Origin: Gammaproteobacteria bacterium
GTDB lineage: Bacteria > Pseudomonadota > Gammaproteobacteria > Steroidobacterales > Steroidobacteraceae
Direction: 5' to 3'
Length of the DNA stretch: 64,000 nt
Assembly: GCA_003164785.1 (NCBI GenBank)
Contig: PLUE01000062.1
Location: 248,001 to 312,000, forward strand
Shown: one piece after another, positions 47,695 through 49,606 of the stretch
How positions within the stretch are numbered: the stretch's first letter is position 1
Layout of the letters: the number at the start of each line of letters is the position of its first letter
The notes under the pieces: model-generated
What the model saw: the letters and a program-made list of their open reading frames with translations, nothing else
Database searches by the model: none
What the model was told of the DNA's origin: nothing
Program-made: the position numbers and the translations under genes

Positions 47695-48561
47695 TCAGGC
47701 AGCGGCCATCAGACCTTTCAGCTTGCTGATGGCATTGCTCTCGACCTGGCGAACGCGCTCTGCCGAAATGCCGTACTCGTCGGCGAGTTCGTGCAGGGTC
47801 GCCTTGTCGTCGGTCATCCAGCGGCGCTTCAAGATGCTGCGGCTACGCTCATCGAGTTTCTCCAGCGCCATGCTCAGGCGATCACTGGAATCTTCCTCCC
47901 ATTCCTCGCGCTCCACCTCGACCGCAGGATCGGCGTTGCTCGCGGGCAGATACATCGCCGGCGAATAGGCCTCTTCCTCGTCGCTTTCCGGCGTCGGGTC
48001 GAACGACATATCGCGAGCGGACAACCGCTGCTCCATCTCGCGAACATCCTTGACCTCGACACCCAAGTCGCGAGCCACCGCCTTCGTTTCTTCCTCGGAA
48101 AGCCACGCCAGGTTCTTCTTCATCTTGCGCAGATTGAAGAACAACTTGCGCTGCGATTTGGTGGTGGCCACTTTGACCAAGCGCCAGTTGCGCAACACAT
48201 ACTCGTGAATTTCCGCACGAATCCAATGCACCGCGAAGGAGACCAGGCGCACCCCCACGTTGGGATCGAAACGCTTGACTGCTTTCATCAGCCCGACGTT
48301 GCCTTCTTGGACGAGATCGCCCATGGGCAGGCCATAGCCCAAGTAGCCACGCGCGATGTGCACGACGAATCGCAAATGCGACAACACGAGTTGCCGCGCA
48401 GCGTCCAGATCGGCATCCGAACGGAAGCGGATCGCGAGCGCGACCTCGTCTTCCTTGCTCAGAACCGGTATCTGGGATACGCGGTCAATATAAGAATCCA
48501 GGCTCCCCACGGGGCCCGCGAACACCAAACCAGTCTTTGTAGCGACTAAGGCGGCAGTCAT
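47695..48561 (-). CDS. rpoH: RNA polymerase sigma-32 factor RpoH
   Basis: [16 protein letters not shown]...[92 protein letters not shown] 48561 with GGAGG SD. Confidence 0.97.
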
Positions 48562-48596
48562 TAGCGGAAACCTCCAATCAAATCTCGGATGCAATA

Positions 48597-48623
48597 ATAG
48601 CACTCCCATAATTGGAGTGCTAA
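48597..48623. promoter_or_regulatory. CIRCE element (HrcA operator)
   Basis: ATAGCACTC-CCATAATTG-GAGTGCTAA: 17/18 match to TTAGCACTC-N9-GAGTGCTAA with exact 9-nt spacer. Confidence 0.88.
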
Positions 48624-48685
48624 CGGCCGCCGGAGTTCATCTTCCGGCGAAAGAAATTCTGAAAATCAACGACTTACGCGTGATT

Positions 48686-49606
48686 CTAGGTCGGTTCGAT
48701 GGCCTTTATGTGGCGCGAGGCTGCAAGCCACGAACCCAACCAGCCTAACGCGACCGCAACGCCCAATACAACGACACTCGGCCCAAATCCCACGCCGCGG
48801 AGATGGAACTCGCTGCCATATAGGCCCGCGAGGCGCCGTACCGCCCCGGCGAGCAGGCCGACCGCGATTCCCACCAGCAGGAGCGCCAAAAGGCCGCCTC
48901 CCAGCCCGTACCAGATTCCGCTGTACAGAAAAGGGCGCCGCGCGAAACCATCGGTGGCGCCGACCAACTTCATGACCTCTATTTCCGCCCGTCGGTTCAA
49001 TATGTCAAGCCGGATCGTATTCCCCACCACCAGGACCACGCCAAGGGCCAAGAGGGCGGCGGTCAGCCACAGCACCCGGTTCGCGATATCCATGAGGGCG
49101 TGCAATCGCTTGACCCATTCGGTATCTGCTTGAACGGTCTGCACGTCGGGCGCAGCGGCAATCGCGTGCTTGAGCGCCTCCAACCCCTCGGGCGTGCTGG
49201 CTGCCGGCGCCGGCGTGACGACCAACGTGTCCGGCAGCGGGTTGTCGCTCAGGGCATCCAGGGCGTTGCCGAATCCGGACGCGGTCCGAAATTGAGCGAG
49301 CGCTTCGTCGGCGGTGATGACGCGGACGGCCGCCACGTCCGAGCGGCCCCGCAATTGCTTTGCCAAGGTTTGCGCCCGTGCACCGGTTGCCTTCTTGTCC
49401 ATGTAGACCGACAAGTCGAAGGCCTCGTTCCAATCCGCCGTGGCCGCGCGGGTGTTGTCCAGGAACACGTTCAGCAGCAAGGGCAGCGCCAGCGCCACCG
49501 CGATCACCGCCATGGTCATCGCCGCCGCCATCGGCTGCTGCGCGATGCGCCCGAGCGACCCCACCAGGGTCTGCGCGTGGCGTGCGGACCAGGTTTGCAG
49601 ACTCAC
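48686..49606 (-). CDS. ftsX: Cell division protein FtsX
   Basis: Permease-like topology; LDILNRRAEIEVMKLVGATDGFARRPFLYSG; directly downstream of ftsE with 4-nt overlap. Confidence 0.95.
   Translation of the reverse strand: MSLQTWSARHAQTLVGSLGRIAQQPMAAAMTMAVIAVALALPLLLNVFLDNTRAATADWNEAFDLSVYMDKKATGARAQTLAKQLRGRSDVAAVRVITADEALAQFRTASGFGNALDALSDNPLPDTLVVTPAPAASTPEGLEALKHAIAAAPDVQTVQADTEWVKRLHALMDIANRVLWLTAALLALGVVLVVGNTIRLDILNRRAEIEVMKLVGATDGFARRPFLYSGIWYGLGGGLLALLLVGIAVGLLAGAVRRLAGLYGSEFHLRGVGFGPSVVVLGVAVALGWLGSWLAASRHIKAIEPT

What the first reader, a model, noticed from the sequence alone, without database searches (positions are those of the whole stretch)
48597..48623. CIRCE operator immediately upstream of rpoH
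ATAGCACTC-N9-GAGTGCTAA (17/18, exact spacer) lies 36 nt before the rpoH ATG, between ftsX and rpoH. CIRCE/HrcA usually controls groE/dnaK operons, while rpoH in enterics is thermosensor- and sigma-controlled. HrcA control of rpoH, which I recall reported for Geobacter, would make a hierarchical circuit in which loss of the repressor triggers the sigma factor.
Basis: partly seen in the sequence, partly recalled or inferred. Interest (0 to 1): 0.65.

Follow-up and report, generated by a model that had tools for sequence, protein, structure and literature searches.

The report
Heat-shock repressor site inside rpoH promoter
The control region of the heat-shock master gene rpoH carries a binding site for the repressor HrcA laid directly over the promoter, and the same arrangement recurs in nearly every sampled gammaproteobacterium (including betaproteobacteria) that still has HrcA, which suggests that the E. 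coli way of controlling rpoH is the exception.

Summary
The CIRCE element is real (48597-48623, 17/18, 9-nt spacer, 35 nt before the rpoH ATG; chance about 0.01 per window). The genome has hrcA, a second CIRCE at groESL (16/18), and rpoE. The site is not an oddity. In genomes sampled across the class, 110 of 115 hrcA+ genomes examined have CIRCE (3 or fewer mismatches) upstream of rpoH, against 4 of 24 hrcA- genomes that are at least 90% complete; two of those four look like decaying remnants. The new point is the geometry. At rpoH, unlike groESL, CIRCE overlies the core promoter. A sigma-E -35 (GGAACTT) sits 16 nt ahead of CIRCE, and its -10 (TC-TAA) is built from the end of the left arm plus the first spacer bases. 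The right arm plus three flanking bases forms an extended sigma-70 -10 (TGCTAAAAT; here TGCTATTAT). The sigma-E promoter has the geometry of E. coli rpoH P3. Most likely HrcA blocks both promoters until heat disables it, so rpoH integrates cytoplasmic (HrcA/GroEL) and envelope (sigma-E) stress. Binding and transcription are inferred. CIRCE at rpoH was predicted earlier for Geobacter; I found no held paper on it for beta- or gammaproteobacteria, but a key 2003 paper was not readable.

The parts
48597..48623 (-). CIRCE operator, TTAGCACTC-N9-GAGTGCTAT in rpoH orientation (17/18)
   Evidence: conserved upstream of rpoH across the class
48633..48639 (-). predicted sigma-E -35 element TGAACTC (consensus GGAACTT), starting 16 nt before CIRCE
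   Evidence: conserved GGAACTT at the same offset in 111 class-wide rpoH sites and absent from groES sites
48612..48616 (-). predicted sigma-E -10 element TCCAA, made of the last two bases of the CIRCE left arm and the first three spacer bases; 16-nt spacer from the -35
48594..48602 (-). predicted extended sigma-70 -10 TGCTATTAT, made of the CIRCE right arm plus three flanking bases; -35-like TTAGCA at 48618-48623
   Evidence: 9/12 match, 18-nt spacer, TG before the -10; flank T conserved in 103/111 rpoH sites vs 5/50 groES sites
48571..48575 (-). Shine-Dalgarno GGAGG of rpoH
   Evidence: sequence
47695..48561 (-). rpoH, heat-shock sigma factor, 288 aa
   Evidence: 52-94% identical to rpoH frames at related loci
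48686..49606 (-). ftsX, upstream neighbour (same ftsY-ftsE-ftsX-rpoH order as E. coli)
   Evidence: E. coli order

Best explanation
The element is an HrcA operator superimposed on the core promoter of rpoH. Two promoters share it: a sigma-E promoter (the counterpart of E. coli rpoH P3) whose -10 is made from the CIRCE left arm and spacer, and a housekeeping sigma-70 extended -10 promoter made from the right arm and three flanking bases. HrcA bound to CIRCE would occlude both. On heat shock HrcA loses activity (intrinsic heat lability and titration of GroEL, as shown or proposed for other species), so RNA polymerase with sigma-70 and, if the envelope is also stressed, sigma-E can transcribe rpoH. 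RpoH then raises chaperones, including GroESL, which restores HrcA and shuts rpoH and groESL off. Shown: the sequence features, their class-wide conservation, and co-occurrence with hrcA. Inferred: HrcA binding, promoter use, start sites, and the feedback.
For: CIRCE 17/18 at rpoH; hrcA in the genome, 226.9 bits; groESL CIRCE in the same genome; bona fide RpoE, 307.8 bits, over the cut-off. CIRCE upstream of rpoH in 110/115 hrcA+ genomes vs 4/24 hrcA- genomes that are at least 90% complete, Fisher p about 1e-15; shuffles reach 3 mismatches in 0.03%. Two same-family pairs in which one member lacks both (G071/G223, G156/G275). Unbiased profile of 111 rpoH sites vs 50 groES sites: GGAACTT (5 or more of 7) at -16 in 65/111 vs 0/50; A at the third spacer base 86/111 vs 3/50; T three bases after CIRCE 103/111 vs 5/50; sites with the -35 also have the -10 base more often (59/65 vs 27/46, p = 1e-4). 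A scan of GTDB genomes for GAAC-N11-CIRCE gave 118 loci, 107 of them upstream of rpoH, in genera such as Alcanivorax, Rhodanobacter, Thiobacillus, Azoarcus, Thioalkalivibrio and Deefgea. E. coli P3 shows the same GAACTT-N16-TCTGA geometry. hrcA-less genus g106 keeps a decaying CIRCE with the sigma-E promoter intact. Bordetella bronchiseptica SigE transcribes rpoH in vitro (PMC3490749). HrcA as intrinsic thermosensor stimulated by GroE: Campylobacter jejuni, PMC8533110.
Against: No binding or expression data for this organism. The window's own -35 (TGAACTC) and -10 (TCCAA) are imperfect. 23 of 111 class sites have no recognisable sigma-E -35 in either register, and in 11 the -35 would place the -10 just upstream of CIRCE instead. 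Five hrcA+ genomes lack a good rpoH CIRCE. The sigma-70 promoter rests on a 3-base flank plus the CIRCE right arm. Genomes are related, so the Fisher p-values overstate independence, although the sample is mostly one genome per family. In Stenotrophomonas maltophilia rpoH mRNA did not rise significantly after 10 min at 42 C (PMC6479208), but I did not check that species for the element.
Confidence: 0.8

Rival explanations
1. CIRCE represses rpoH through HrcA in the classical way, but the promoter resemblances are coincidental or only one of the two promoters (sigma-E or sigma-70) is real; transcription starts elsewhere, e.g. in or before ftsX, and HrcA acts as a roadblock.
For: CIRCE at groESL sits just downstream of an ordinary promoter, so HrcA does not need to overlap the -10; 34 of 111 rpoH sites lack the -35 in the embedded register.
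Against: GGAACTT peaks at one offset only, 16 nt before CIRCE (0.59 of sites vs at most 0.08 elsewhere); spacer and right-flank bases are conserved at rpoH and not at groES; the sigma-E promoter persists where CIRCE is lost.
Confidence: 0.13
2. The inverted repeat acts as an RNA stem-loop in the rpoH leader (mRNA stability or a thermosensor) rather than as a DNA operator.
For: The repeat could pair in a transcript that reads through from ftsX; such a leader folds better than shuffles (z -3.55).
Against: From the predicted start sites the left arm is not transcribed; that leader folds no better than shuffles (z -0.56). In the read-through transcript the minimum-energy fold does not form the CIRCE hairpin. 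Presence tracks hrcA. No Rfam family matches (the best hit is far below its gathering score).
Confidence: 0.04
3. The element is a non-functional remnant: HrcA's only important target here is groESL.
For: One mismatch; some own-genus species have 3 mismatches at rpoH (G021).
Against: It is closer to consensus than the groESL site in the same genome (17/18 vs 16/18); conserved across the class with hrcA; the single mismatch improves the sigma-70 -10 (TATTAT).
Confidence: 0.03

Closest known systems
HrcA/CIRCE regulon; Geobacter sulfurreducens rpoH CIRCE (Rodionov et al. 2004, PMC545781, Table 8; prediction)
   Same: Perfect CIRCE upstream of rpoH (-51 from the start), together with groESL and hrcA-grpE-dnaK-dnaJ sites; same repressor-over-sigma-factor hierarchy.
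   Different: There rpoH is reported in one of the deltaproteobacterial genomes studied and no promoter overlap is described; here it is class-wide and fused to sigma-E and sigma-70 promoter elements, and in the window genome no CIRCE was found in front of hrcA-grpE-dnaK.
E. coli rpoH P3 (sigma-E promoter)
   Same: GAACTT-N16-TCTGA in the ftsX-rpoH gap; same gene order.
   Different: No CIRCE; the HrcA family search found nothing in E. coli (controls). rpoH in E. coli is instead controlled by an mRNA thermosensor and chaperone-dependent turnover (own knowledge).
Bordetella bronchiseptica SigE-dependent rpoH (fam) promoter (PMC3490749)
   Same: Experimental support, by in vitro transcription, that an RpoE-type sigma factor transcribes rpoH in a betaproteobacterium.
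   Different: HrcA is not mentioned in that paper; I had no Bordetella sequence to check for the overlap.
groESL CIRCE in the same class
   Same: Same operator, same repressor.
   Different: Sits just after a TTGACA-N17-TATTAT-type promoter, with no sigma-E -35 and a different spacer and flank.

Membership tests
HrcA/CIRCE regulon | TTAGCACTC-N9-GAGTGCTAA with exact spacer | tested here: met
   17/18, N9
HrcA/CIRCE regulon | hrcA encoded in the same genome | tested here: met
   PF01628, 226.9 bits at G000:C28:196690-197355, followed by dnaK
HrcA/CIRCE regulon | CIRCE also at groESL | tested here: met
   G000:C65:75150-75176, 16/18, upstream of groES-groEL
HrcA/CIRCE regulon | CIRCE at hrcA/dnaK operon of this genome (common, not defining) | tested here: not met
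   no CIRCE with 3 or fewer mismatches there; Rodionov et al. note groESL as the only constant member
HrcA/CIRCE regulon | HrcA binding and heat derepression | not testable with these tools
   needs EMSA and expression data
sigma-E (RpoE) promoter | GGAACTT-type -35, 15-17 nt, TC-type -10 | tested here: met
   TGAACTC-N16-TCCAA here; GGAACTT-N16-TCTAA in the class profile
sigma-E (RpoE) promoter | cognate RpoE encoded in the genome | tested here: met
   TIGR02939 307.8 bits, above cut-off 236.15
sigma-E (RpoE) promoter | transcription by E-sigmaE | not testable with these tools
   shown for rpoH in Bordetella by others (PMC3490749)
E. coli-type rpoH RNA thermosensor | unusually stable structure around the start codon | tested here: inconclusive
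   predicted leader z = -0.56; no specific comparison with the E. coli structure was made

The most novel reading that the evidence does not exclude
In the ancestor of the Gammaproteobacteria (in the broad sense, including betaproteobacteria) rpoH was controlled by a single composite element in which an HrcA operator doubles as the -10 of a sigma-E promoter and the extended -10 of a sigma-70 promoter. It acts as a one-site gate that combines cytoplasmic and envelope stress. Lineages that lost hrcA kept the sigma-E promoter and had to find another sensor, of which the E. coli mRNA thermosensor is one.
Probability: 0.5. Interest if true: 0.75.

Novelty: new variant of a known kind. Interest (0 to 1): 0.58.

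Why it matters
Textbook rpoH regulation comes from E. coli, which has no hrcA. If the composite works as it reads, the default wiring in this large class is different: a repressor that senses free GroEL controls the heat-shock sigma factor, at the very bases used by the envelope-stress sigma factor. It gives a concrete, class-wide and cheaply testable hypothesis for how rpoH is switched on where the E. coli thermosensor is absent, and a natural experiment (hrcA losses) for how such circuits are rewired.

Tried and rejected
RNA-level explanations: Rfam scans and folding gave no support; the predicted start sites leave out the left arm. The in-frame ATG at 48609 inside the CIRCE spacer was set aside as a start because it precedes the predicted start sites and the ATG at 48561 has a Shine-Dalgarno. 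My first rpoH translation was out of frame and was redone. The class-wide pattern includes GAAC and so favours sites with a sigma-E -35; for unbiased statistics I used rpoH genes found by protein search, irrespective of CIRCE. Searches of held papers for HrcA/CIRCE control of rpoH in beta- or gammaproteobacteria found none. Permina and Gelfand 2003 (doi 10.1159/000077248), the paper most likely to have listed such sites, is not held, so priority for 'CIRCE at rpoH in beta/gamma' is unknown to me. No CIRCE was found at hrcA-grpE-dnaK in this genome, and I could not make out a convincing sigma-32 promoter before hrcA by eye.

Full report
THE OBSERVATION. In rpoH orientation the region reads TGAACTC-CGGCGGCCG-TTAGCACTC-CAATTATGG-GAGTGCTAT-TAT-...-GGAGG-...-ATG; 17 of 18 operator bases match and the spacer is exactly 9. 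By shuffling, 0.01 such sites are expected in the window. rpoH starts at 48561, 35 nt away, and ftsX ends at 48686.

THE GENOME. Its 5.85 Mb contain one hrcA, with dnaK about 0.6 kb downstream on the same strand and nadK divergent on the other side, and one bona fide RpoE. Only two CIRCE-like sites reach 3 or fewer mismatches: rpoH and groESL.

HOW COMMON IT IS. In 60 relatives from genus to order, 59 have CIRCE-like sites, typically two per genome, and nearly all loci fetched and classified fall upstream of groESL or rpoH. I then sampled the class: 229 genomes, mostly one or two per family. hrcA was found in 162. rpoH was located by protein search without regard to CIRCE and its upstream DNA fetched for 146 usable genomes. 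CIRCE with 3 or fewer mismatches lies upstream of rpoH in 110 of 115 hrcA+ genomes and in 9 of 31 hrcA- genomes; shuffled sequence reaches that in 0.03%. Five of those nine hrcA- genomes are incomplete assemblies. Among hrcA- genomes at least 90% complete it is 4 of 24, and two of the four, from one genus, are degenerate (TGTGCACTC-N9-GAGTGTTAA). In two families one member has hrcA and CIRCE and the other has neither. CIRCE at rpoH is thus the rule, tied to hrcA, and not an oddity of this genome.

THE GEOMETRY. Aligning upstream regions showed a GAAC exactly 11 nt before CIRCE in most relatives. Named organisms include Alcanivorax, Rhodanobacter, Arenimonas, Thioalkalivibrio, Thiobacillus, Azoarcus, Dechloromonas, Methyloversatilis, Limnobacter, Deefgea and Chitinilyticum. 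In the unbiased class sample (111 sites) the profile before CIRCE is GGAACTTT at -16 to -9, and the first three spacer bases are T-A/C/T-A. With the last two bases of the left arm this gives GGAACTT-N16-TCTAA, a sigma-E promoter with its -10 inside the operator. The -35 occurs at one offset only (59% of sites at -16, at most 8% elsewhere); 50 groES CIRCE sites have none there. Allowing one base of slippage, 77 of 111 sites have it, 11 more have a sigma-E -35 that puts the -10 just upstream of CIRCE, and 23 have neither. Sites with the -35 also have the -10 base more often than those without (p = 1e-4).

THE SECOND PROMOTER. The three bases after CIRCE are AAT or a variant ending in T (103/111 at rpoH, 5/50 at groES). 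With the right arm they form TGCTAAAAT, an extended -10 for sigma-70. A consensus scan of the window independently picked the same place (TTAGCA-N18-TATTAT with TG, 9/12). The window's single mismatch to CIRCE (last base A to T) is the base that turns TAANAT into TATTAT. The groES sites instead show the classical layout: a TTGACA-like -35 and a TATTAT -10 abutting CIRCE. That layout was recovered with no prior assumption and serves as a positive control for the method.

EVOLUTION. E. coli, where the HrcA search finds nothing (controls), has GAACTT-N16-TCTGA in the same gap (P3) and no CIRCE. Many other hrcA- genomes keep a sigma-E-like promoter (52% vs 5% in shuffles). The genus with a decaying CIRCE keeps TGAACTT-N16-TCTTA and TG-N-TAA intact. 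Two hrcA+ genomes that lost a full CIRCE (G259, G171) keep GAACTT-N16-TCCAA or TCAAA. This fits an ancestral composite from which the operator is lost when hrcA is lost.

MECHANISM. HrcA on this site would cover both -10 elements. HrcA is heat-labile and stimulated by GroE in Campylobacter (PMC8533110), and that paper cites the GroE titration model for Bacillus. Heat would therefore free rpoH for sigma-70 polymerase and, when the envelope is stressed, for sigma-E polymerase. A sigma-E-type factor does transcribe rpoH in vitro in Bordetella (PMC3490749). RpoH then raises chaperones, and GroESL (itself under CIRCE) restores HrcA. Shown here: sequence, conservation, co-occurrence. Shown by others in other species: HrcA heat-lability, GroE stimulation, SigE-dependent rpoH transcription. 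Inferred: that these apply here, the start sites, and the feedback.

ALTERNATIVES. An RNA role is unlikely: predicted transcripts lack the left arm, and their leader folds like shuffled sequence (z -0.56). A read-through transcript folds well (z -3.55) but not into the CIRCE hairpin. A relic is unlikely because the rpoH site is better than the groESL site of the same genome.

NOVELTY. CIRCE upstream of rpoH was predicted for Geobacter sulfurreducens in 2004 (PMC545781), and sigma-E at rpoH is known. In the library I could search, no paper connects HrcA to rpoH in beta- or gammaproteobacteria, and none describes the shared element. Permina and Gelfand 2003 could not be read and may have listed the sites. 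I therefore call it a new variant of a known kind; the class-wide link to hrcA and the promoter-operator fusion are the parts most likely to be new.

Noticed in passing
G000:C65:75150-75176 (L002) and own-genus genomes: The groESL CIRCE of this genus has a consistently altered left arm (TTAGCAGCC, two mismatches; one species TTGGCAGCC) in the own-genus species listed, so here the rpoH operator is closer to consensus than the groESL one; elsewhere in the order both are usually perfect or nearly so.
   Followed up: partly
G000:C16:14917-16425 (L005): A second groEL-like gene (about 54% identical to the main GroEL) in the same region as a glutamyl-tRNA synthetase-like frame, with no CIRCE.
   Followed up: no
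L265 and L266 (genus g106, G133 and G260): Genomes without detectable hrcA keep a decaying rpoH CIRCE; all changes fall at bases not needed by the two predicted promoters.
   Followed up: partly
L322 (G069) and L125 (Catenovulum sp. 2E275): Two tandem CIRCE-like elements upstream of rpoH.
   Followed up: no
L158, L353, L355, L357, L372: A minority of genomes in the class also carry CIRCE directly before hrcA, so autoregulation of hrcA looks patchy while rpoH and groESL sites are near constant.
   Followed up: partly
L202 (G259) and L203 (G171): hrcA-bearing genomes whose rpoH CIRCE has degenerated (in G171 only the right arm is left) but whose sigma-E promoter is intact.
   Followed up: partly
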